Notes: a model not told the origin generated them from the letters alone. DNA of 64,000 bases from Sulfodiicoccus acidiphilus (GCF_003967175.1 NZ_AP018553.1:1847982-1911981), one strand, 5' to 3'; positions 43,296 through 57,754 are shown, numbered from the stretch's first letter. Translations and numbers: made by a program.

Positions 43296-44666
43296 ATGAG
43301 CGTTAAAGAGGAGATATTGCGACTGTTGAAGGAAGACCCTGATTTCCGAAGAGAATTAAGTGATGTATTAGGGCTCACGGCATTTAGCCAGCTCAAGGAG
43401 GCTACAGAGCAGTTGTCTAAGGTAGTAGTCCAGTCCAGGGACTTAGCTGTCCGTTTAGAGGGCGTGGTGGAGAGGTTGGTGCAGAGGGTCGATCAACTGA
43501 CGCAGAGGGTCGACCAGTTGGCGGTCAGGATGGACCAGTTGGCGGAGGCCCAGAGGAAGACGGAGGAAGAACTCAAGCTGTTGGCGGAGGCCCAGAGGAA
43601 GACGGAGGAGAGGTTGAACCAACTGACGCAGAGGGTCGACCAGTTGGCGGTCAGGATGGACCAGTTGGCGGATGCTCAGAGGAAGACGGAGGAGAGGTTG
43701 AACCAACTGACGCAGAGGGTCGACCAGTTGGCGGATGCTCAGAGGAAGACGGAGGAGAGGTTGAACCAACTGACGCAGAGGGTCGACCAGTTGGCGGATG
43801 CTCAGAGGAAGACGGAGGAGAGGTTGAACCAACTGACGCAGAGGGTCGACCAGTTGGCGGATGCTCAGAGGAAGACGGAGGAGAGGTTGAACCAACTGAC
43901 GCAGAGGGTCGACCAGTTGGCGGTCAGGATGGACCAGTTGGCGGAGGCCCAGAGGAAGACGGAGGAGAGGTTGAACCAACTGACGCAGAGGGTCGACCAG
44001 TTGGCGGTCAGGATGGACCAGTTGGCGGATGCTCAGAGGAAGACGGAGGAGAGGTTGAACCAACTGACGCAGAGGGTCGACCAGTTGGCGGAGGCCCAGA
44101 GGAAGACGGAGGAAGAACTCAAGCTGTTGGCGGAGGCCCAGAGGAAGTTAGAGGAGTTCTTATTGGCTACAAGGAAGGAGTTCTCAGAGAGGTTCGATAG
44201 GTTGGAGAACAAAATAGGGATGCTAGACAAGACCATTAGTAGCCTCGGTCAAAGGTGGGGAGTCAGTTACGAGGAGCTGATAAGGGAGTTCTTCAAAGAG
44301 ATTGTCGAGAGTGAAGGGATAAACTTAGACTTCATAAACAGGTTCACCTACAAAGACCAACAGGGTAATTTCGGTGCTAAGGGAACTAGGTATGAAGTCG
44401 ATATATATGCTAAAGACGATAAGGTCTATCTCATGGAGGTCAAATCCTTCGCAGAGGGCGACGATGTGGAGTGGTTCAACACTAAGTGCGACGTCCTGAC
44501 TAGAGTATTAGGACTGAAGAACCCCATTAAGTTGTTCTTGGCAGTTACAGCTAGGGAGGACGCGGTGGAGAGTAGCAAGGCCCACGGAGTTAAGCTGATA
44601 TATGGAAATCTGGTGGAAGAACCCAAGAGGTCCAAAGGGAAGAGCGAGGAAGACCTCTCAGCGTAG
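43296..44666 (+). CDS. Coiled-coil protein with expanded tandem repeats and a PD-(D/E)XK nuclease-like C-terminus (DUF3782-like)
   Basis: This 456-residue protein has an N-terminal helical region (about 1-65) and then a long coiled coil (65-290) built from near-identical 21- or 28-residue units of the pattern AQRKTEERLNQLTQRVDQLA, with or without an inserted VRMDQLA. At DNA level the 63- and 84-bp units are almost perfect copies. After residue 290 comes the conserved domain: GVSYEELIREFFKEIVESEG, TRYEVDIYAKDDKVYLMEVK (D...E-V-K nuclease-like core) and LFLAVTAREDA. It is a longer paralog of 14030-14860. TATA box ggttaaaata (about 43264) precedes the ATG by leaderless spacing. The biological role is unknown. 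Confidence 0.8.
   Translation: MSVKEEILRLLKEDPDFRRELSDVLGLTAFSQLKEATEQLSKVVVQSRDLAVRLEGVVERLVQRVDQLTQRVDQLAVRMDQLAEAQRKTEEELKLLAEAQRKTEERLNQLTQRVDQLAVRMDQLADAQRKTEERLNQLTQRVDQLADAQRKTEERLNQLTQRVDQLADAQRKTEERLNQLTQRVDQLADAQRKTEERLNQLTQRVDQLAVRMDQLAEAQRKTEERLNQLTQRVDQLAVRMDQLADAQRKTEERLNQLTQRVDQLAEAQRKTEEELKLLAEAQRKLEEFLLATRKEFSERFDRLENKIGMLDKTISSLGQRWGVSYEELIREFFKEIVESEGINLDFINRFTYKDQQGNFGAKGTRYEVDIYAKDDKVYLMEVKSFAEGDDVEWFNTKCDVLTRVLGLKNPIKLFLAVTAREDAVESSKAHGVKLIYGNLVEEPKRSKGKSEEDLSA
43470..44140. repeat. Tandem 63/84-bp coding repeats
   Basis: About nine in-frame units built on gaggttgaaccaactgacgc and agagggtcgaccagttggcg, with or without the 21-bp insert gtcaggatggaccagttggcg. Near-perfect identity implies recent unequal recombination; the region is also a likely spot for assembly collapse. 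Confidence 0.9.
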
Positions 44667-46727: not shown

Positions 46728-47339
46728 TTAGCTCAGGACAAACTCGGCTATCTCTCTCGAGAGATCTGGGATGCTCTTGTCCCTTGTGCTGTACTCTAAA
46801 TACCTCGCCTTAACTCCCCCGTTGTTAAGGCATTCTGTTAGCGCTCTTCCGCTCTTAACCTCTCCACAATCCAGTCCAGATCTGCTCAAAATTCCCGCGA
46901 CTTCACCGTAGTTGGGCTTCCACAGGACTACTGGTTCCAGTACAACTAGATAAGCCCTACCTCTAAGAGCACCTAAATCCACGGTCGTGACCCCCGTAGC
47001 TACGGTGTTCACGAAGTCGCTTAGGATTACCGCCTTTCCCCCGAAGGTGGCCGCCAGCCTCAGGGCCGGTCCCACGTCGGTGTTGCCGACTTCACCCCTG
47101 CAGACGTCTAGGACTTTAGTACTAGTGTAAGTTCTAGTGTCGAGGACCCCTAAGGACTGCATGCGAGATCCAGAACGCGGGAACGTGTAAACCCACATTG
47201 ATGGTAACTTTCGAGGCCCGGCCGTTGCTCTCAACCTGCCCAAGACCTGAGTGAGCAGCGACGACACGACCTCCCTGTTATGTGTGTTACAGATCGAACC
47301 GGAATTGTCGATGATCAGAGCGAAGTCCACAGGCATCAC
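46728..47339 (-). CDS. von Willebrand factor A (vWA) domain protein
   Basis: The 203-residue protein is a single vWA domain with an apparently complete metal-ion-dependent adhesion site: FALIIDNSGS (DxSxS), a Thr in GEVGNTDVGPALRLA, and an Asp in AVILSDFVNTV. There is no signal peptide or membrane helix, so it acts in the cytoplasm, as vWA proteins of NTPase-associated complexes do. It is divergent from the tubulin-like/GTPase cluster, from which a relic insertion sequence now separates it. vWA proteins occur in neighbourhoods of FtsZ-like and double-GTPase systems in other prokaryotes, so it likely belongs to the same machine. The start could be GTG 47339, ATG 47336 or GTG 47330. Confidence 0.75.
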   Translation of the reverse strand: MMPVDFALIIDNSGSICNTHNREVVSSLLTQVLGRLRATAGPRKLPSMWVYTFPRSGSRMQSLGVLDTRTYTSTKVLDVCRGEVGNTDVGPALRLAATFGGKAVILSDFVNTVATGVTTVDLGALRGRAYLVVLEPVVLWKPNYGEVAGILSRSGLDCGEVKSGRALTECLNNGGVKARYLEYSTRDKSIPDLSREIAEFVLS

Positions 47340-47494
47340 ACTCCATTGCTGTTTTTTAAGCTGAAATGTAGAATGGTTTGTCCCTAAGCGTCGCCCAAAT
47401 TTCTCAGCTTTAGTACCGACCTCAATCTGGGTTAACTCTTGGGCGATGGGAGGGGATCTGGCAACTATCTAAGCAACACCTTGTCACTACGTGA

Positions 47495-47773
47495 ACTGCC
47501 CCGCCCTCAGGGACGAGGCGTCCTCCCGGTGAGTCCCGCTCCTCGGAGGGACCTCGATCTCCTTACGTAACGGAGGTTCCGTGGGACCGTCCTGTGGAAG
47601 AGGGGTCACGGAGGGTTTCCTCTCCACGGGCGTGAGTTCCCCCAGTCCCGAGGGTGCGACCCAGCTCTTTCAGTTAGGTCTGGTAAATACTGGGTTTTTA
47701 TTACAATACGTTTCTATAATGGAGCCATCCGTCCTCACGGAAGGGGACTTCCGTCCCCTCGACCCCCGTAAAG
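47495..47773 (-). mobile_element. IS605-type relic with a TnpB C-terminal tail
   Basis: On the minus strand a left end (TTTACGGGGGTCGAGGGGAC, hairpin GGACGGAAGTCC) is followed by a frame reading KSWVAPSGLGELTPVERKPS, PLPQDGPTEPPLRKEIEVPP and REDASSLRAGQF. This is the Pro-rich, otherwise poorly conserved tail seen on archaeal TnpB proteins. The right end CCTCGTCCCTGAGGGCGGGG overlaps the final codons. The catalytic RuvC part is gone. It lies between the vWA gene and the tubulin-like gene. Confidence 0.5.
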
Positions 47774-47993
47774 TTAAATTGTGTACCCTGGTCGCTCGAT
47801 GTCCTGCCTTACGTACTGTTAAGGAGTTCTCGTCCAATTGAAACTACTGCGGAAGGAGTGCTAGTTCACGAAATTATGGAGGAATTCCTCTAGATCACAT
47901 GGTCATTCCACACACTCAGGAGTGATCTCGCCTATGTTTGTTATATATCGATTAGCTTCTCCTTCGATTAGCATAAAAAAGGTTGCTCCAAAA

Positions 47994-48004
47994 GGTTTAT
48001 ATTT
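47994..48004 (+). promoter_or_regulatory. TATA box of the tubulin-like/GTPase operon
   Basis: ggtttatattt is centred about 33 bp upstream of the TTG start at 48033, placing transcription start a few bases before it. The four genes to 54450 are close enough to be one transcript. Confidence 0.55.
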
Positions 48005-48032
48005 TTCCTAAGCGGACTTCCCTTGATTTGGG

Positions 48033-50978
48033 TTGCCAATTACTCTTTACGCAATAGGCCTTGGGAACGTAGGGACAACCATATTGGCCCAGTTCGACGG
48101 TGGAATAGGAATCAAGGGTTCCGGGGCGAAACTTCAGGCCATAGACATGCATTTGAGTGACCTGCCACAAATAGAGAGGAAAGTAGGATCCGCCTCGAGT
48201 AGGATAACTTTCGTTCAACTCTCGGCCGATGAAGCGTACTTCAGGCAGGACAGGTTAAGAAAAAACACCTTTGAAACACCCAACTTGGCCTACCCTCCAC
48301 TGAGGAGATATTGGGATCAATTAACGTCGATAATACAGTCCCTGGGAGTAGGCAAGGGAGTATCCAGGTATCGTCCGTTGGCGAGGTACTACCTAGGTGT
48401 CACCTCTGACAGGTTGGTGGGAGGGGTTAACAGCGCAGTGCAGGAGGTGTCCAGGGATAGACCAGGCAGACTTGGCGTCTTCTTCGTGCTCAATGGAGGC
48501 GGAGGGTTCGGCTCGGGGAGCTTCCTCGATGTGAGCAGCGTGGTGATGAACGCGCTTTCGACCTCTGGCATACCGTTCGAGTATCACCTCGTTCTCAACC
48601 TACCCGCAGGAGAGGGCAACGCTGTCACCTACTCCAAGGCAGACATGCCCCTGGGAGACCTACGGGACCTTCGGGCCGCGGCCGCCGCCTCGCTGGTCGA
48701 CCTCCTGTGGCTCTCGTACTTGACCAAACTGAACGGGAAGTACAAAGACAGGGTCACGGAGAACGTGAGGAACTCCCTTCACATCGAGGACTACGGGCTA
48801 GCCGCAGTCTGGGACGGAACTAGTGAGTCCTACCTGATACTTACTACCTATCATGGACCGACAGGGAGCCTGGAGACGAAGTACTCTTACCACGACGTCT
48901 CCATGGCCATCATGTTAGCTCTGGCAAAAGAGGAGTTCTCTAGGACTTCTACGGGGGTGGACATGAGACCCCACCTGATGAAGGACAACGGAGAGGCGAT
49001 GAGAGCTGGGATAATCAGGCAGAACCTCTCGGCCCTCTTAACTGAGTACCTAGGTAGAAAGGGGTGGTCCAGGACTGATCCAGACTTGCCCAACTTAACT
49101 TCGGTGCTCGCCCAACCGGTGATTATACCGACCATCTCGGCGTGGGTGGGTAGGATACCTGGGGAGAAGTTAGACGCCATAAGGAGATCGAACGAACAGG
49201 TGAAGCTGATCCAGTCCAGGCTGGAAAGCGAGAGGCCGAGGATCTCGGACATCGGTAAGAGGAAAAGCGAACTATCCAGTTCCGTTGACAGCGTCAACAA
49301 GCTCAAGGCGGAACTGTCCGCACTTAAGGAACAGTGTTCCGACCCGTCCAGAGAGGCGATCTGTGAGGGGATGTTGTCGGCAACAGCTAAGTTAACGGTT
49401 GACCCACTCAGGAACTGGATATCTAGCTTGAGCGAACTAGCAGGTGATCTCGCTGCTCAGAGGGCGGCCCTCCTACAGGAGTGCAAGACGTATGTAGACA
49501 GCGGAGAGAGGGGAGAAGTGTGCCTCAATCAGTTGACTCAATTGGGTAACGTGTTGGAACAGTCCACCACCTTCATGACCATACTGAGGGGGAGGGTGAT
49601 TCCGATATCTGATGACGAGGTGAACAGCATGTTGAGAGATGCGGTTCCTGCAGAGGGCAACGCTCCCGAGGAAGTGAAGTCTAAGTACGTATCTTTGCTA
49701 GTCCTCAACAAATTGCTCCTAGACCTAGGAAACCCGAAGAGCGGGGCCCTAGGTAAACTTAACTCCGAGATGAACAACTTGGCTGAGATGCTGAGCAGAG
49801 TGAGGTCTGCCGCCGACTCACACAAGGGTCCCCTAAACCTGTGGGGTAGGTTACACAAGAGAATACTGAACGAAGCTGGCGACACCCTCCAGGACATCAC
49901 CCAGGCTATGAAGGAGATCAACAAACAGGAGCTGTTCGGCGAGGCGGGGAGCTTCAACAAGTGGTTGAAGAGCATAGGTGAGGTCCAGAGCAAGGTCTTC
50001 TCTACGTTGGATCAACGACTAGGCACCGTGATGAACAGTCTAGGCAAGAGCGAGGAAGAGTACACTAGCGTGAGGACCACAATAAGCGACCTCGAGTCCA
50101 AGTTGGAACAGGCCACTGAGGAGTCGAGGAGGGCGGTCTCCGAGGGGTTGTCGGAGCTACTCAGGGACCTGTACACCTTGGACATGAGTGGGCTTCACGA
50201 CGACCTCAGGAGGGAGCTGGAAACCTACCTGCAAGACCCAGGAAACCTCCAGGCCCTCATGGAGCAGGCCACGAGTGGGGGGTTGGGCATAGGGGACGTC
50301 TTCGAAGTGATGAGACAGAGAAAGGGAGACGACTACAGGCAGTTCCTTAACTCGTTAGCACAGGGCATGGCGGACGGAGTGGTAAGGAAAGCATTCGCCA
50401 CAGTAGACGAGGGGGCGGTTAGGCACTACTTGGCGAGGCTTGGAGAGGATAAGGACATTAACGGCTACTACTACAGACCAGAGGGGTTCTACCTGGTCCA
50501 CAGCAGGGACAACCTGCAGTTGGCGAGGCAACTGAGGCCCATGCTGGCGGCTAAGGCAGGAGTTAAAGAGGAAAGCGTCTCTCTAGTGCAGGTGGATAGC
50601 TCCAACAGCCTCCTAGCGCTTGTGGGATTCTACGTTGTTCCGTTGCTCCTCGTAGAAGAGGTGAGGGAGCAGTTAATGCCGGCCTTCTTCGAGAAGGTGA
50701 ACCGCGTAGTGACGGGAGATTCCCCGAACAGCAGGAACTACGTTACTGAGGAGAGGGGGAAGCTCTACCTGTCCCTAGTTCAGACTCCATCAGCCTACGA
50801 CGACAATACCCTGAAGAAGTTCCTCAAGGCCATGAGGCTAGTCCTCGAAATACAAGATCCTCAGGAGACCGCTCCTCAGGTAGCTGCACCTCAAGCGACT
50901 AACGTACAACCTCAGGACGACTCCAACACTTCACTCCCCGTGAAACCCACCACAGTTAACACGCAGGAGGGAAGATGA
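48033..50978 (+). CDS. Tubulin/FtsZ-superfamily protein with a long central coiled coil
   Basis: The 981-residue protein starts at TTG 48033. LYAIGLGNVGTTILAQF (5-21) is the first nucleotide-binding loop, and LNGGGGFGSGSFLDV (153-167) is the tubulin signature GGGTGSG-type loop with Phe in place of Thr. Tubulin-like sequence continues to about 385 (SYHDVSMAIMLAL, AQPVIIPTISAWV). Residues 385-760 are mostly helical with coiled coils (ESERPRISDIGKRKSELSSS, ISDLESKLEQATEESRRAVS). A mixed domain follows and a Pro/Gln/Thr-rich tail ends it. This is not cell-division FtsZ but resembles the large FtsZ-like families described in operons with vWA and NTPase genes. It probably polymerises with GTP; filament function is unknown. 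Confidence 0.75.
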   Translation: MPITLYAIGLGNVGTTILAQFDGGIGIKGSGAKLQAIDMHLSDLPQIERKVGSASSRITFVQLSADEAYFRQDRLRKNTFETPNLAYPPLRRYWDQLTSIIQSLGVGKGVSRYRPLARYYLGVTSDRLVGGVNSAVQEVSRDRPGRLGVFFVLNGGGGFGSGSFLDVSSVVMNALSTSGIPFEYHLVLNLPAGEGNAVTYSKADMPLGDLRDLRAAAAASLVDLLWLSYLTKLNGKYKDRVTENVRNSLHIEDYGLAAVWDGTSESYLILTTYHGPTGSLETKYSYHDVSMAIMLALAKEEFSRTSTGVDMRPHLMKDNGEAMRAGIIRQNLSALLTEYLGRKGWSRTDPDLPNLTSVLAQPVIIPTISAWVGRIPGEKLDAIRRSNEQVKLIQSRLESERPRISDIGKRKSELSSSVDSVNKLKAELSALKEQCSDPSREAICEGMLSATAKLTVDPLRNWISSLSELAGDLAAQRAALLQECKTYVDSGERGEVCLNQLTQLGNVLEQSTTFMTILRGRVIPISDDEVNSMLRDAVPAEGNAPEEVKSKYVSLLVLNKLLLDLGNPKSGALGKLNSEMNNLAEMLSRVRSAADSHKGPLNLWGRLHKRILNEAGDTLQDITQAMKEINKQELFGEAGSFNKWLKSIGEVQSKVFSTLDQRLGTVMNSLGKSEEEYTSVRTTISDLESKLEQATEESRRAVSEGLSELLRDLYTLDMSGLHDDLRRELETYLQDPGNLQALMEQATSGGLGIGDVFEVMRQRKGDDYRQFLNSLAQGMADGVVRKAFATVDEGAVRHYLARLGEDKDINGYYYRPEGFYLVHSRDNLQLARQLRPMLAAKAGVKEESVSLVQVDSSNSLLALVGFYVVPLLLVEEVREQLMPAFFEKVNRVVTGDSPNSRNYVTEERGKLYLSLVQTPSAYDDNTLKKFLKAMRLVLEIQDPQETAPQVAAPQATNVQPQDDSNTSLPVKPTTVNTQEGR

Positions 50979-50982
50979 CCTA

Positions 50983-52002
50983 TTGTCCAAGAGAGTAGAA
51001 GAGGCTGAAGTCAGACCGTTCGACCCAGGAGAGATCCTAGCGGTGAAGGAGAGGGAGTACCACAGATCTCGGGTCGTCGCGGTCCTTGGGTACCCTGGGG
51101 CCGGGAAGACCGTCTTCCTGGCGGCTCTGACGTACTACTTCGACACCAACTACGACACTGGCATATCCTACCAAATCACGTACGGACAGGACTACTTGAT
51201 GGAGACTAGAGATAGACTCCTTAAGGACGAAGTTCCACGGGGGAAAAACCTTCCCGACATACCCTTCACCGCAGCCGGGAGGAACTTCCCCATCGGGGTG
51301 AAGTTGTGGAGGAAGGAGAAGAAGTTTATAGGAGAGAGGACGGTGGAGGTCAACCTGACCCTGAACGACGCCGGAGGAGAGACATTCGAGGCCATGACCA
51401 ACTACGTGAACAGGAAGCAGTTGGGTAAGTTCTACGCACATGTAACGGAGAAGGGAGAGGAGCTCAGGATCGACGATTCAGAAGCAGTTAGGCAGTACTT
51501 GAATCCGTTCGTGGCGAAGGTGACTAACTGCTTCACTGTTTCCGGTGGGGACTGTGTCAGGGGAGGCGCAGAGGAGCCGTTAGGCCCTCACACCCAGTTG
51601 CTCTACGCAGACAGGTACCTAGTGTTCATAGACGCCTCTAACCCAGAGCTATTTCACCCTGAGAAAGGAACGTCGTCAATGAGACAGTCCCAACTGCTCG
51701 ACCTAGTTTTCCTCTCTTGGGCGGCGCAACAGGCTGTCCTGAGGGGGAGAAGGAGGTTTCCGAAGGTCCCCATAAGCATAGTCTTCACAAAGACCGACTT
51801 GCTGGAGAGGGACGAGGCTCTCTCCAGGCTGTCGGGTTTAGAATTGATGAACAGATTGGGAGGAACCTTCAGGAACGTGGCCCACAGGTACTTCCAGTAC
51901 AGGGAGGACGACGTTCTCAAGATGTACGTGAGGCGGGACGGAGACGTCCTCGCAGCTCCCTTCCCCCAGATCAACAGGTTAGTAAATCAGTTGTTGGAGT
52001 GA
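50983..52002 (+). CDS. P-loop GTPase of the tubulin-like cluster
   Basis: The 339-residue protein has a P-loop GYPGAGKT (36-43), a DxxG-type switch in NLTLNDAGGETFEAM (D129), and the G4 specificity motif TKTD (269-272), so it is a TRAFAC-like GTPase. Between G3 and G4 is an insertion of about 100 residues with two Cys (TNCFTVSGGDCVRGG). No membrane segment is seen. It starts at TTG 50983, four bases after the tubulin-like stop, and its own stop overlaps the next gene. Related GTPases occur in the double-GTPase/GAP1 systems of other prokaryotes; here there is a single GTPase domain. Confidence 0.8.
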   Translation: MSKRVEEAEVRPFDPGEILAVKEREYHRSRVVAVLGYPGAGKTVFLAALTYYFDTNYDTGISYQITYGQDYLMETRDRLLKDEVPRGKNLPDIPFTAAGRNFPIGVKLWRKEKKFIGERTVEVNLTLNDAGGETFEAMTNYVNRKQLGKFYAHVTEKGEELRIDDSEAVRQYLNPFVAKVTNCFTVSGGDCVRGGAEEPLGPHTQLLYADRYLVFIDASNPELFHPEKGTSSMRQSQLLDLVFLSWAAQQAVLRGRRRFPKVPISIVFTKTDLLERDEALSRLSGLELMNRLGGTFRNVAHRYFQYREDDVLKMYVRRDGDVLAAPFPQINRLVNQLLE

Positions 52003-53645
52003 TGGGTTTGCCCATCCTTCAAATGGTGGAGATGCGGGTTCAGGGAAGAGGATATAGCGTAGCCGCTCGATCACCGGGCACGAAGTTACTGAAGCCGGAG
52101 AGCTTGGGTGGGATCTCTAGCACTGATGGGGTAAAGGATCGTAGGAGGGACTTCACGTCAATTAGGACTTCCTTCACAACGGAGTTAGGAAACGGACAGG
52201 ACTCAGGCATGTACGCCATTGTGACAGTGCTTAAGGGCATGAAGGAGTCTCCAGACGGAAGAGACAACGTGTTCGTCCACACTATGATCATTCCGGAGCC
52301 AGAGTACAGGGAGAGGAAGTACGATCCGTCTCCCCTCCTGAAGTTGACTGACGAACTTTACAGAATTAGGGAGGACCTGATGGTGGGGAAGGTGAAGGAA
52401 CTCGAGGAGCCAAAGATCCCTGAAGGAGATGGCCAGGTGAGTTGTGGCGAGGGGAAGGAGTTGGCCATGATCTGGGCTTACTCCGTCCTCAACGGAAACG
52501 TGGGTGGGACGGCGGAGACCAGTTGCGAACCCCACCAGGCTCTCCTAGCCATGATAAGGGCTCTCCCCCTCAACCTCAGGTTGAGCAACTTCGCCTCGAT
52601 CAGTGAGGCGGAGGAGTCTCCTAATCCAGCTAACCGCTCGTCGACGTTCTACGTGATGAAGGGGAGACCCGCCAGAGCTCCTAGCAGTAACGTACTAGAC
52701 CCTGTCGCCGAAGTCCTGGATCAGTTGAGGAGAGCGAAGAGGGAAGAGTTGGAGATGGAGGTAAGCCCAACGGGCCACCTTGATGTCGATCTCAAGTACT
52801 GGGCGTACATATCTCAGTGGAACGCTAAAGTCAGGGATCCTCGTCTACGTCGCTACATCTTAGAGAACTCGCCTCCAGACGACCTTAGCAAGTGGATTGA
52901 AGGGGTTGGGTTAGACGAGAAGGAAATTTCGCGGGCGCTCTCGGCTTACCTCACCAGAGGTAGAACGAGATCCCCTCTCCCTCCTAGGGAGGACAAGTGC
53001 AGTGCGTTGGCTAGGTCGCTCAACTCCCTCTCTGGCAAGCTCTCCCACGAGCTGGGAAGGGCGTTGGAAGAGAATTGCCCCAGGATCTTGAGCTCTCTGA
53101 GTCCGAAGCTTAAGGTGGAACTCGGATTGAGAGCGGAGACCTCGGAACTATCGGAACCGGATCTGGCTCTTGAGGCATTGCGTGACCCCGAGAACGGGAA
53201 GAGAGCAATTCAAGCCCTCTTTCAAGATGTCGAAAGATTGTTGGAGTCCAAGGTGTTCCAAAGCGGGTCATTTCCTTTCGGCAGGAGATCGGCTCCAACC
53301 GATCTGGAGGTTAAGGAATTCGTAAAGGAGGCGATAGTGTTAGACGGGAAAGTTTTCGCGTTCGGAGAGAGGCTTAGGGAGTTAGGGGAAGTTGGGAGAG
53401 ATAGGAGGGACCTATTCTCGAAAGTGAAGGGTGAACGAGACAAGTACTTGAGCAAACTCTACGAGCTAGTCCACGAGAGAAGGGGTGTTTGCAGTGATGT
53501 GTTGAAGGACGTCAAGAGGTCTGATGGTAAGGACGACCTTTACTACCACGTAGTTGAGCTCCTGTGTGAGCACCTCCCCTCCAGGGGAAGGAAGTTCAGG
53601 GAGGCCCTACTTGAGCTGCACAAGGAGCTGGTAGAGTTTGACTGA
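52002..53645 (+). CDS. Large protein resembling GTPase-associated protein 1 (GAP1)
   Basis: The ATG at 52002 overlaps the GTPase stop (GTGATG; GTG 51999 is also possible) and gives 547 residues. The N-terminal region (QMVEMRVQGRGYSVAARSPG, then SGMYAIVTVLKGMKESPDGR, DNVFVHTMIIPEPEYRER) has the pattern of a Q-x-x-x-GY-x-V-x-A-x-SPG strand followed by GRxxxFVHTL. That is how I remember GAP1 N-terminal domains. From 240 on it is helical and charged, with scattered Cys (KCSALARSLNSLSGKL, GVCSDVLKDVK). It probably binds the GTPase or links it to the tubulin-like filament. The family match is from memory and needs a profile search. Confidence 0.5.
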   Translation: MGLPILQMVEMRVQGRGYSVAARSPGTKLLKPESLGGISSTDGVKDRRRDFTSIRTSFTTELGNGQDSGMYAIVTVLKGMKESPDGRDNVFVHTMIIPEPEYRERKYDPSPLLKLTDELYRIREDLMVGKVKELEEPKIPEGDGQVSCGEGKELAMIWAYSVLNGNVGGTAETSCEPHQALLAMIRALPLNLRLSNFASISEAEESPNPANRSSTFYVMKGRPARAPSSNVLDPVAEVLDQLRRAKREELEMEVSPTGHLDVDLKYWAYISQWNAKVRDPRLRRYILENSPPDDLSKWIEGVGLDEKEISRALSAYLTRGRTRSPLPPREDKCSALARSLNSLSGKLSHELGRALEENCPRILSSLSPKLKVELGLRAETSELSEPDLALEALRDPENGKRAIQALFQDVERLLESKVFQSGSFPFGRRSAPTDLEVKEFVKEAIVLDGKVFAFGERLRELGEVGRDRRDLFSKVKGERDKYLSKLYELVHERRGVCSDVLKDVKRSDGKDDLYYHVVELLCEHLPSRGRKFREALLELHKELVEFD

Positions 53646-54450
53646 GTGTGGAGAAGTTTACCGTCGAGCGGCAAAGGCCTTAGTTGAGAGGAACTTGGGG
53701 GTGCTCAGGTCCGCGGTGAGGGAGATGGAGGAGTGCAGTACTACCTCATTTAGGGCCCTCTCCGACGCCCTAAACTCCTGCACAAAGAACGAGGTGTCCT
53801 GCGAGAGGAAGCTCGGCGTAGGGGCTGTTCAACTATCCGAAGAGAAGGGACTTCTCCCATCTGAGGTGTGTTCACTACTCGCTGCGGCTGAGCAACTCCT
53901 GTCAAGCTCCGACATGGAATACGACGGGTGGCTCATGGCCGCCAGGAACAAGTCAGTCATCCTAGGTTGTGAGAGAGATCCGTTGATGAACTGCGTGGGT
54001 GACAGGGTAGCGGTTCCCGCACTAGTCGTGGACTGGAGGGAGTTCGCGAGGTCATTGAAGGAAAGGGGAGGCACGGAGTGTCAAGACACGGTCAACTTCC
54101 AAGAGTTCTCGGTCGTGAAGGGAGACAGACTTAGGGGTCGGGACTACATGAAGACGTCGAGTAACGTAATAGTGGAGTTGGACATCGCTGGCAGAGACAA
54201 CGTCGCACGAGACGGAGAACTGCGGAGCGGACTCTCCAAGCTCAGGTTCGAGAGGGTGATGCTCTTACTGAAGAACTGGGGAGACTTCACCTACGCTCCG
54301 GAGCTGTTGGGGTACTACACTGACCCCGAGGGGGCCTTGAGGAAGTACCTGTCCTCAAGGTGGCCATTATTGTGGAGGACGATAAGGGGAAAGAGGGTCT
54401 CACGGCTAGAGTTGGACGAGGTTATACGGGAACTCGAGGGTGAGGAATAG
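53638..54450 (+). CDS. Unrecognised helical protein, last gene of the tubulin-like cluster
   Basis: The TTG at 53638 overlaps the previous gene by 8 bp. The 270-residue product is helical and Cys-containing at the N-terminus (ECGEVYRRAAKALVERNLGV, AVREMEECSTTSF, SCTKNEVSCERKLG). The middle is strand-rich (VNFQEFSVVKGDRLRGRDYM, NVIVELDIAGRD), and the end is helical (SKLRFERVMLLLKNWGDFTY, RLELDEVIRELEGEE). No family recognised. Strict co-translation with the GTPase and GAP1-like genes says it belongs to the same complex. Confidence 0.6.
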   Translation: MTECGEVYRRAAKALVERNLGVLRSAVREMEECSTTSFRALSDALNSCTKNEVSCERKLGVGAVQLSEEKGLLPSEVCSLLAAAEQLLSSSDMEYDGWLMAARNKSVILGCERDPLMNCVGDRVAVPALVVDWREFARSLKERGGTECQDTVNFQEFSVVKGDRLRGRDYMKTSSNVIVELDIAGRDNVARDGELRSGLSKLRFERVMLLLKNWGDFTYAPELLGYYTDPEGALRKYLSSRWPLLWRTIRGKRVSRLELDEVIRELEGEE

Positions 54451-56160: not shown

Positions 56161-57724
56161 ATGTTTGCCGTAGCGACCGACCACGAGCTCTCCACCGGGG
56201 CCGCGGTCGAAGTTCTAATGAAGGGAGGAAACGCGGTGGATGCGGCCATCGCCGCGTCCGTGGCACTGAGCGTCGTCGACCCATACATGTCTGGGTTGGG
56301 AGGGTTCGGGGTGGCCATAGTGAAGAGAGACAAAGTTTACGGACTCAACTTCGTCGGTACCGCCCCTCGCGAGCTCAGGGCAGAGCTCCTCACTCGGGAA
56401 GATCCTTGGGAGGAGTACAGGCCCTCGTTCGATGGTCCACTGTCTGTGCTAGTTCCAGGTTCCGTAGCAGGTTGGGGTGAACTGCACGCCAAGTTCGGTA
56501 CCTTGGACTGGAAGGAGGTGGTACTCCCTGCGATTAGGTTGGCCAGAGGACACGTAGTCACGGAGAGGATTTGGAAGTTCTACGAGGGAATAAAGGGAAG
56601 GGCGGGGCAGTTTCACGCAAACTACGAGACTTTCTACAAGGACGGCAGGTTTCCGCTACCTGGGGAAACGTTGAGACAGCCGGACCTCGCGAGTACTCTC
56701 GAGACCTTGGCAGACGAGGGATGGAGGTCCTTCTACTCCGGGACACTAGCCAAGAAGACGGTGGAAGCTGTCAGGGAACAGGGAGGACTCATGGACGATG
56801 AGGACCTTAGGAACTACTCCCCGGTGTGGGTAGACCCGATCGAGGTGAGCCACGGTAACTACGTAGTTTACTCCCTCCCTCAGGGAACCTCAGGGCCAAC
56901 TGTGCTGGAGTGGTTGAACGTAGTAGAGGAGCTAGATCCGCGGGGGACTGGAGATCGGGGGAGTTCGCCCATCTCTTCCTCGAAGCAGGGAAGTTGGCGC
57001 TCAGGGACGACGACATTTGGAACACTGGAAAGGACTACTACAGGGTGCCCCTAGACTTCCTCCTGAGCAGACAGAGGGCTAAGTCGCTCGCTGGGAAGGT
57101 CTCTAACGAGGCTAAGTTCTACCCCAAGGTTGGGAGGAGCGTGTACGGCGAACACACGACTAGCCTATCAGTGGTCGACGACGACGTTTCGGTCACCATC
57201 ACGATGACCCAGATGTACGGCTTCGAAAGGAACGGACTTCTGAGGGGCCTGGGGTTCAACTTGAACGACGGAGCGTGTTACTTCAGCCTCGACCCCGCGG
57301 ACAAGGAGAGGGTGGAGCCTGGCCAGAGGCCACGCTTCCCGCTCTCTCCAGTGGTGGCCGTGAGCGAAGAAAGGACGGTGACCATGGGGGCCGCCGGAGG
57401 TTGGACGATCCCACAGACCGTGACCCTCACCCTACTCAAGTCCCTGAGGTTCGGGGCTGCAGTGAACGACGCTGTCAACTCGCCACGCTACCTCATGAGA
57501 TACAGGACAAACTCCATCCCTTACCCTCCCGGGACGGAGGTCGAGGTTGAGGAAGGGATACCCTCGGATACCATCAATTACCTGAGGGCGAGAGGACACG
57601 TTTTGGCCAGACACACTCCACTGGGAGGGGTTCCTTCGGGGCCCTCAACGGGGTGGAGGTGCGCGGAGGGAGGCCCGTTCCAGGAGCGGACGGGAGGAGG
57701 AAGGGGTCTGGCGCTGTGGGCTGA
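56161..57724 (+). pseudogene. ggt: Gamma-glutamyltranspeptidase, two apparent frameshifts
   Basis: The N-terminal frame has AVEVLMKGGNAVDAAIAAS, DPYMSGLGGFGVAIVK and VPGSVAGWGELHAKFGTLDW, all GGT landmarks. At the G5 run 56942-56946 the frame shifts; one added G continues DPRGDWRSGEFAHLFLEAGK. The autoprocessing and catalytic Thr lies in YGEHTTSLSVVDD. A second shift at 57627-57630 is healed by one G, giving GGGSFGALNGVEVRGGRPVP and the end at 57724. Repaired, the enzyme has about 520 residues and no obvious signal peptide. It would cleave gamma-glutamyl bonds (glutathione, gamma-glutamyl peptides). Neighbours are a pyroglutamyl peptidase and a peptide importer. Confidence 0.85.
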
Positions 57725-57754
57725 ACTTTTTACCCGGCTCAAGTAACACAGCTC

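What the first reader, a model, noticed from the sequence alone, without database searches (positions are those of the whole stretch)
46728..54450. Tubulin-like filament protein, GTPase, GAP1-like protein and vWA protein in one archaeal locus
Seen: a 981-residue protein with tubulin-superfamily loops (GLGNVGTT; NGGGGFGSGS) and a huge coiled coil is coupled within 4-8 bp to a P-loop GTPase, a 547-residue protein and a 270-residue protein. A cytoplasmic vWA protein is divergent. Known: FtsZ-like families in operons with vWA or NTPase genes, proposed for membrane remodelling, and GTPase/GAP1/vWA conflict systems have been described comparatively. Inference: this is a self-contained GTP-driven assembly, perhaps for defence or membrane remodelling, that combines parts of both in a Sulfolobales-like host.
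Basis: partly seen in the sequence, partly recalled or inferred. Interest (0 to 1): 0.85.

Follow-up and report, generated by a model that had tools for sequence, protein, structure and literature searches.

The report
Archaeal tubulin-like filament and GTPase operon
A heat-loving archaeon (Sulfodiicoccus acidiphilus) carries a tightly packed operon in which a filament-type tubulin relative is paired with a GTP switch, the switch's partner protein and a neighbouring vWA protein; it is a very divergent archaeal version of a toolkit already predicted from bacterial genomes but never tested.

Summary
At 46728-54450 lie a small vWA protein (divergent strand) and a four-gene operon: a 981-aa tubulin/FtsZ-like protein with coiled coil, a P-loop GTPase, a 547-aa protein and a 270-aa protein. 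The host is Sulfodiicoccus acidiphilus HS-1 (assembly exactly 2,353,189 bp). The tubulin-like gene belongs to FtsZ-like 1/Tubulin_2 and forms a rare crenarchaeal subfamily with two others, each with a small vWA gene next door. The GTPase is a DO-GTPase: Pfam's two best families, and E 1.3e-8 to a profile of archaeal DO-GTPases that sit beside GAP1 genes. The 547-aa protein shares the ordered GAP1-N2 motifs and ranks first of 162 proteins against that domain, though Pfam's own models miss it. So this is the tubulin theme of DO-GTPase/GAP1-N2 systems (Kaur 2020, described as restricted to Firmicutes and Actinobacteria), in a stripped crenarchaeal form without FNIII, zinc-ribbon or membrane parts. 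The combination is therefore not new. Function (regulated filament assembly, probably in conflict with invaders) is inferred. Lead: vWA-tubulin genes sit beside brxL in Thermales plasmids. AlphaFold of the tubulin part failed (shallow alignment). Among archaeal loci examined, all four parts occur together only here.

The parts
46728..47339 (-). vWA-domain protein (203 aa), MIDAS DxSxS at residues 11-15 and SD at 107-108, no transmembrane segment
   Evidence: ORF; MIDAS positions conserved with relatives; AF2 model low confidence (pLDDT 44.9, pTM 0.51) but Foldseek and VIA-align lists are almost all vWA/I-domains; no Pfam hit
47490..47780 (.). dispersed ~290-bp repeat lying between the divergent genes (not part of the system; separates it)
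   Evidence: at least 41 copies in the genome, about 73-85% identity for most; alignment
47997..48005 (+). TATA-like box (TTTATATTT), centre about 32 bp before the TTG start; predicted near-leaderless promoter of the operon
   Evidence: sequence read directly; inference from archaeal promoter architecture
48033..50978 (+). Tubulin/FtsZ-like protein (981 aa): nucleotide-binding N-domain (about 1-370), long coiled coil, C-terminal globular domain (about 750-930)
50983..52002 (+). DO-GTPase-like protein (339 aa): P-loop GYPGAGKT, Walker B/G3 NDAGGE, G4 TKTD
   Evidence: Pfam DO-GTPase2 E 1.2e-4 then DO-GTPase1 E 0.0023, both below cut-off; E 1.3e-8 to archaeal DO-GTPase profile; alignment
52002..53645 (+). 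GAP1-like protein (547 aa): GAP1-N2-type motifs in residues 14-200
   Evidence: immediately downstream of the GTPase; no Pfam GAP1 hit
53638..54450 (+). 270-aa protein without known relatives, last gene of the operon; predicted soluble
   Evidence: ORF; no family hit; overlaps the GAP1-like gene by 8 nt; hydropathy

Best explanation
A crenarchaeal, strongly diverged DO-GTPase/GAP1 system of the tubulin theme. Shown here by sequence: a tubulin-superfamily protein with coiled coil, a DO-GTPase, a GAP1-like protein directly behind it and a vWA protein beside the operon. Inferred: the tubulin-like protein polymerises with GTP into a coiled-coil-decorated filament or lattice; the DO-GTPase with GAP1 acts as the switch that licenses assembly after a trigger; the vWA protein binds a ligand or partner through Mg2+ and feeds the trigger or tethers the filament; the 270-aa protein is an accessory subunit. 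No part has a clear membrane segment, so the assembly is most likely cytoplasmic. Its role is most likely a conflict (anti-invader) response rather than cell division.
For: Tubulin superfamily. DO-GTPase: Pfam's top two families and E 1.3e-8 with all other P-loop ORFs of 483 at E >= 0.2, apart from a second DO-GTPase-like gene. GAP1: collinear hhalign over residues 14-200; first of 162 proteins, score 26.6 over 91 columns against 21.4 over 14 for the next unrelated protein; the three-motif pattern occurs in 1504 ORFs only in Pfam-positive GAP1-N2 genes and here, 0 of 20,000 shuffles. Gene order DO-GTPase then GAP1 is the published one. vWA-tubulin pairing in all three members of the subfamily. 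Patchy distribution, 15 of 229 genomes of the class, and broken copies fit a dispensable accessory system. No clear TM segment.
Against: Pfam GAP1-N2 and GAP1-M models do not hit; with the full-length GAP1 profile one unrelated decoy scores higher, over fewer columns, and the motif regex was written after seeing the alignment. No FNIII protein, no zinc ribbon, only one vWA gene, so several typical parts are missing. No defence gene was recognised beside the locus (Pfam on some neighbours, PADLOC on the five proteins only). No T7-type catalytic motif (NxDxx[DE]) found in the tubulin domain, so GTP hydrolysis on assembly is doubtful. No experiment exists.
Confidence: 0.65

Rival explanations
1. 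Membrane-remodelling or cytoskeletal machine of the FtsZ-like 1 type (Makarova & Koonin): the tubulin-like filament shapes membranes or vesicles, with vWA and GTPase as partners, and no role in defence.
For: FtsZl1 operons with vWA and GTPase genes were proposed for this (PMC2875224). Other crenarchaeal FtsZl1 loci do carry membrane proteins: a signal-peptide/TM protein in front of the tubulin gene and a multi-TM coiled-coil protein behind it.
Against: None of the five proteins here has a clear TM segment; the maximum hydropathy is 1.96 in a globular part of the tubulin-like protein.
Confidence: 0.25
2. Two unrelated units side by side: a tubulin-vWA pair and a separate DO-GTPase/GAP1-like pair that became neighbours by chance or recombination.
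For: In all other archaeal loci examined the two occur apart: GTPase plus a 563-aa GAP1 candidate without tubulin in another Sulfolobaceae genome (L104), tubulin-vWA without GTPase in Acidilobaceae and Desulfurococcales.
Against: 4-bp spacing and 1- and 8-nt overlaps indicate one transcript and translational coupling; the same combination recurs in Firmicutes and Actinobacteria; the two relatives' contigs are only 5 and 8.6 kb long.
Confidence: 0.15
3. A decaying remnant, no longer functional, in a genome with many pseudogenes.
For: The second tubulin-like gene of this genome is split by a frameshift (L031), a Saccharolobus-type copy is split by an insertion (L034), the nearby GGT gene is split and 244 pseudogenes are reported.
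Against: All five genes here are intact long frames with a TATA-like box; T1, T4, P-loop, Walker B, TKxD and MIDAS residues are all kept.
Confidence: 0.07

Closest known systems
DO-GTPase/GAP1-N2 systems, tubulin theme (Kaur, Burroughs, Iyer & Aravind 2020, PMC7159879)
   Same: DO-GTPase followed by GAP1, tubulin-domain protein with C-terminal coiled coil, vWA protein, one neighbourhood.
   Different: Sulfolobales instead of Firmicutes/Actinobacteria; no FNIII protein, no zinc ribbon on the GTPase, no TM parts, single tubulin gene with a single small divergent vWA gene; extra 270-aa orphan; GAP1 so diverged that Pfam misses it.
FtsZ-like 1 (FtsZl1) family and its vWA/GTPase operons (Makarova & Koonin 2010, PMC2875224); Pfam Tubulin_2 PF13809
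   Same: N-terminal FtsZ/tubulin-like domain, long coiled coil, C-terminal domain; vWA and GTPase gene partners; a crenarchaeal member (SSO1376) was noted, disrupted by a transposon.
   Different: T4 loop GGGFGSGS instead of GGGTGSG; a separate crenarchaeal subfamily (support 100/99) not with the Saccharolobus-type genes; intact.
Thermales plasmid operon vWA - tubulin-like - ~680-aa protein - BrxL (Allomeiothermus silvanus, Thermus oshimai, Meiothermus taiwanensis; seen here)
   Same: vWA gene next to a Tubulin_2 protein of similar length with a further partner gene.
   Different: BrxL instead of DO-GTPase; the 680-aa protein is not GAP1-like in our test.
Second Tubulin_2 locus of the same genome (G000 C1:1433561, L031)
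   Same: Same protein family in the same cell.
   Different: Different subfamily, with membrane proteins and a zinc-finger-type gene, no vWA or GTPase, tubulin gene frameshifted.

Membership tests
FtsZl1 / Tubulin_2 (PF13809) | N-terminal tubulin/FtsZ nucleotide-binding domain with T1 and glycine-rich T4 loop | tested here: met
   E 4e-5 but 23.5 bits, below the 27-bit cut-off; E 1e-6 to a profile without its own subfamily; loops aligned; PDB profile hits
FtsZl1 / Tubulin_2 (PF13809) | extended coiled coil after the domain, then a C-terminal domain | tested here: met
   Coiled-coil-type library matches at about 380-730; C-terminal part conserved with L005, residues 585-898; no coiled-coil predictor was run
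FtsZl1 / Tubulin_2 (PF13809) | tubulin fold in a structure model | tested here: inconclusive
   AF2 with 3 sequences pLDDT 34.5
DO-GTPase/GAP1-N2 system | TRAFAC GTPase of the DO-GTPase family with conserved Glu in Walker B | tested here: met
   NDAGGE aligned with DISGED and DMSGEN of archaeal DO-GTPases; profile E 1.3e-8; Pfam best families but below cut-off
DO-GTPase/GAP1-N2 system | GAP1 gene directly downstream of the GTPase | tested here: inconclusive
   Gene position met. Homology: for, hhalign, ordered motifs and rank 1 of 162; against, no Pfam hit to GAP1-N2 or GAP1-M
DO-GTPase/GAP1-N2 system, tubulin theme | tubulin-domain protein with C-terminal coiled coil in the neighbourhood | tested here: met
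   4-bp spacing
DO-GTPase/GAP1-N2 system, tubulin theme | vWA gene(s) in the neighbourhood | tested here: met
   One divergent vWA gene, fold support moderate
DO-GTPase/GAP1-N2 system | FNIII-repeat protein | tested here: not met
   No FNIII match in the five proteins; an unrecognisable version is not excluded
DO-GTPase/GAP1-N2 system | N-terminal zinc ribbons on the GTPase (common, not universal) | tested here: not met
   No CxxC in the GTPase
Known anti-phage defence system | recognised defence proteins in the operon, or measured protection | tested here: inconclusive
   PADLOC only weak coiled-coil and P-loop matches; protection cannot be measured here

The most novel reading that the evidence does not exclude
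A complete tubulin-filament immune system in Crenarchaeota, cells that divide by ESCRT-III without FtsZ: a GTPase switch triggers a tubulin-superfamily lattice that sequesters or walls off invaders. The vWA-tubulin pair would then be a portable defence module, also plugged into BrxL islands of Thermales.
Probability: 0.3. Interest if true: 0.8.

Novelty: new variant of a known kind. Interest (0 to 1): 0.52.

Why it matters
Tubulin-theme DO-GTPase systems are a common predicted but, as far as the papers read here show, untested class of conflict systems, described only for Firmicutes and Actinobacteria. This locus gives an intact, five-gene, apparently membrane-free version in a cultured thermophile whose proteins should be stable, in a lineage without FtsZ-based division, so filament assembly and GTPase control could be tested without confusion with cell division. 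It also extends the DO-GTPase/GAP1 pair to Sulfolobaceae.

Tried and rejected
AlphaFold of the vWA protein: low confidence, used only as support. Close relatives of the GTPase in 84,980 species by peptide patterns, in plasmids and in viral contigs: none. 547-aa protein in viral contigs and in 229 genomes of the class: no convincing hit. Viral or plasmid origin: no match for the tubulin in viral contigs or of its domain in phages. Pfam DO-GTPase2 in the class gave only P-loop-sized chance hits below cut-off. 680-aa Thermales protein as GAP1: rejected. Empty site in the same-genus genome: synteny differs and the contigs are short, cannot tell. The PADLOC mad8 and LmuB matches look like generic P-loop and coiled-coil similarity.

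Full report
WHAT IS THERE. The window is 1847982-1911981 of a single-contig genome of 2,353,189 bases, the exact length published for Sulfodiicoccus acidiphilus HS-1. The five ORFs of the finding are confirmed. The four plus-strand genes are separated by +4, -1 and -8 nt and share one TATA-like box at 47997-48005, so they are very probably one operon (inference). The vWA gene is divergent; 291 of the 693 bp between them are a dispersed repeat found at least 41 times in the genome.

TUBULIN-LIKE PROTEIN. Pfam's best family is Tubulin_2, E 4e-5 but below its cut-off. A class-wide search found Tubulin_2 in 15 of 229 genomes, 13 above cut-off, including a second locus in this genome. Alignment shows T1 (GLGNVGT), a conserved GVxRxRPL motif and T4 (GGGFGSGS, where most members have GGGTGSG). 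A profile of 21 other members finds the window protein at E 1e-6, decoys at E 4 or worse. A profile of the crenarchaeal set, window protein included, finds CetZ/FtsZ, TubZ and Asgard tubulins in PDB (best E 1.4e-8). The tree joins the window protein with one Acidilobaceae and one Desulfurococcales protein (100/99) and apart from the second copy of the same genome. AlphaFold on three sequences failed.

vWA PROTEIN. Only the MIDAS motif was visible; Pfam gives nothing. Both subfamily relatives have a small vWA-type gene beside the tubulin gene: convergent in L005/L066 (VWA_CoxE E 2e-5, below cut-off), divergent in L038/L067 (MIDAS only). MIDAS residues D11, S13, S15 and S107-D108 are invariant. 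The three-sequence model has low confidence (pLDDT 44.9), yet nearly all Foldseek and VIA-align matches are vWA/I-domains. I accept vWA at about 0.85.

GTPASE. Pfam's two best families are DO-GTPase2 and DO-GTPase1, below cut-off. DO-GTPases standing beside Pfam-positive GAP1-N2 genes were taken from three archaeal genomes of the phylum. Their profile hits the window GTPase at E 1.3e-8; the only other hit below 0.2 among 483 ORFs is a GTPase in another Sulfolobaceae genome (L104), whose best Pfam family is DO-GTPase1, although weak. The Walker B Glu typical of DO-GTPases is present (NDAGGE).

547-AA PROTEIN. Pfam finds no GAP1 domain. Aligned to three archaeal GAP1-N2 proteins it shows, in order, GYSVAARSPG / GYQIIAQSEG, DGRDNVFVHTMII / DGRRGTLYNHTFI and LPLNLRLSNFAS / LPESLRLVSFSS. 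Against the N-terminal 205 residues of GAP1 it ranks first of 162 proteins, 26.6 over 91 columns versus 21.4 over 14; against full-length GAP1 one decoy scores higher but over fewer columns. Together with its place directly behind the DO-GTPase this makes GAP1 likely (about 0.75), not proven.

270-AA PROTEIN. No relative found in the libraries searched; soluble by hydropathy.

NEIGHBOURHOODS. Other crenarchaeal loci fall into types: a signal-peptide/TM protein, tubulin and a multi-TM protein; tubulin with two helical proteins; and the vWA-tubulin subfamily of the window. No other crenarchaeal tubulin locus examined holds the GTPase. In three Thermales plasmids a conserved vWA - tubulin-like - ~680 aa - BrxL run lies, in two of them, among further restriction or defence-type genes, a lead for a defence role.

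KNOWN OR NEW. FtsZl1 with vWA and GTPase partners was described in 2010, including a disrupted Sulfolobus copy. Kaur 2020 described DO-GTPase/GAP1-N2 systems, 52% of them with tubulin genes, stated to be restricted to Firmicutes and Actinobacteria, with vWA genes. The window is therefore a new, strongly reduced crenarchaeal variant of a known kind, not a new combination.

MECHANISM. Shown by sequence: the parts and their order. Inferred: vWA senses or tethers, DO-GTPase/GAP1 switches, the tubulin-like protein assembles; no T7-type catalytic motif was found, so nucleotide-driven disassembly may rely on the GTPase partner. Defence is favoured over membrane remodelling because no part has a clear membrane segment, but neither has been tested.

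Noticed in passing
window 47490-47780 and at least 40 other places in the genome (L110-L119): A ~290-bp dispersed repeat, mostly 73-85% identical, with a palindromic GTGAACTACCCCGCCCTCACGGACGGGGCGTCC end and a strongly folded body; it resembles (from memory) the ends of IS200/IS605-type elements. No Rfam hit in the window. Could be a non-autonomous element or a structured RNA family.
   Followed up: partly
L072, L075, L076 (plasmids of Allomeiothermus silvanus, Thermus oshimai, Meiothermus taiwanensis): Conserved vWA - tubulin-like - ~680-aa - BrxL gene run; beside it a DISARM/BREX-like helicase and methyltransferase in Allomeiothermus, and helicase, DUF1156 and HEPN genes in Meiothermus. The one full-text search made found no description of it.
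   Followed up: partly
L104 9146-11808 (Saccharolobus-like genome G028): A DO-GTPase-like gene overlapping a 563-aa gene (possible GAP1, not confirmed), followed by a small TM protein and a 703-aa secreted/TM protein, without any tubulin gene.
   Followed up: partly
L031 9513-12169 (same genome, C1:1433561 region): Second Tubulin_2 gene of the host, of another subfamily, split into 417- and 454-aa frames; a Saccharolobus-type copy (L034) is split with a 319-aa ORF between its halves.
   Followed up: partly
window 56161-57746: Gamma-glutamyltranspeptidase gene split into two overlapping frames (297 and 278 aa), while the same-genus genome has one 518-aa frame (L120).
   Followed up: partly
window 43296-44666: DUF3782 protein with many near-identical tandem coiled-coil repeats (QLTQRVDQLAxx) before a C-terminal part that looks like a PD-(D/E)XK nuclease.
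   Followed up: no
L071 and L074 (Rhodococcus and Agrobacterium plasmids): Tubulin-like genes in metabolic clusters with an aliphatic amidase; in Agrobacterium also MoxR-type (CbbQ) ATPases, VWA proteins and CbtA/CbtB: a non-defence context for the same family.
   Followed up: no
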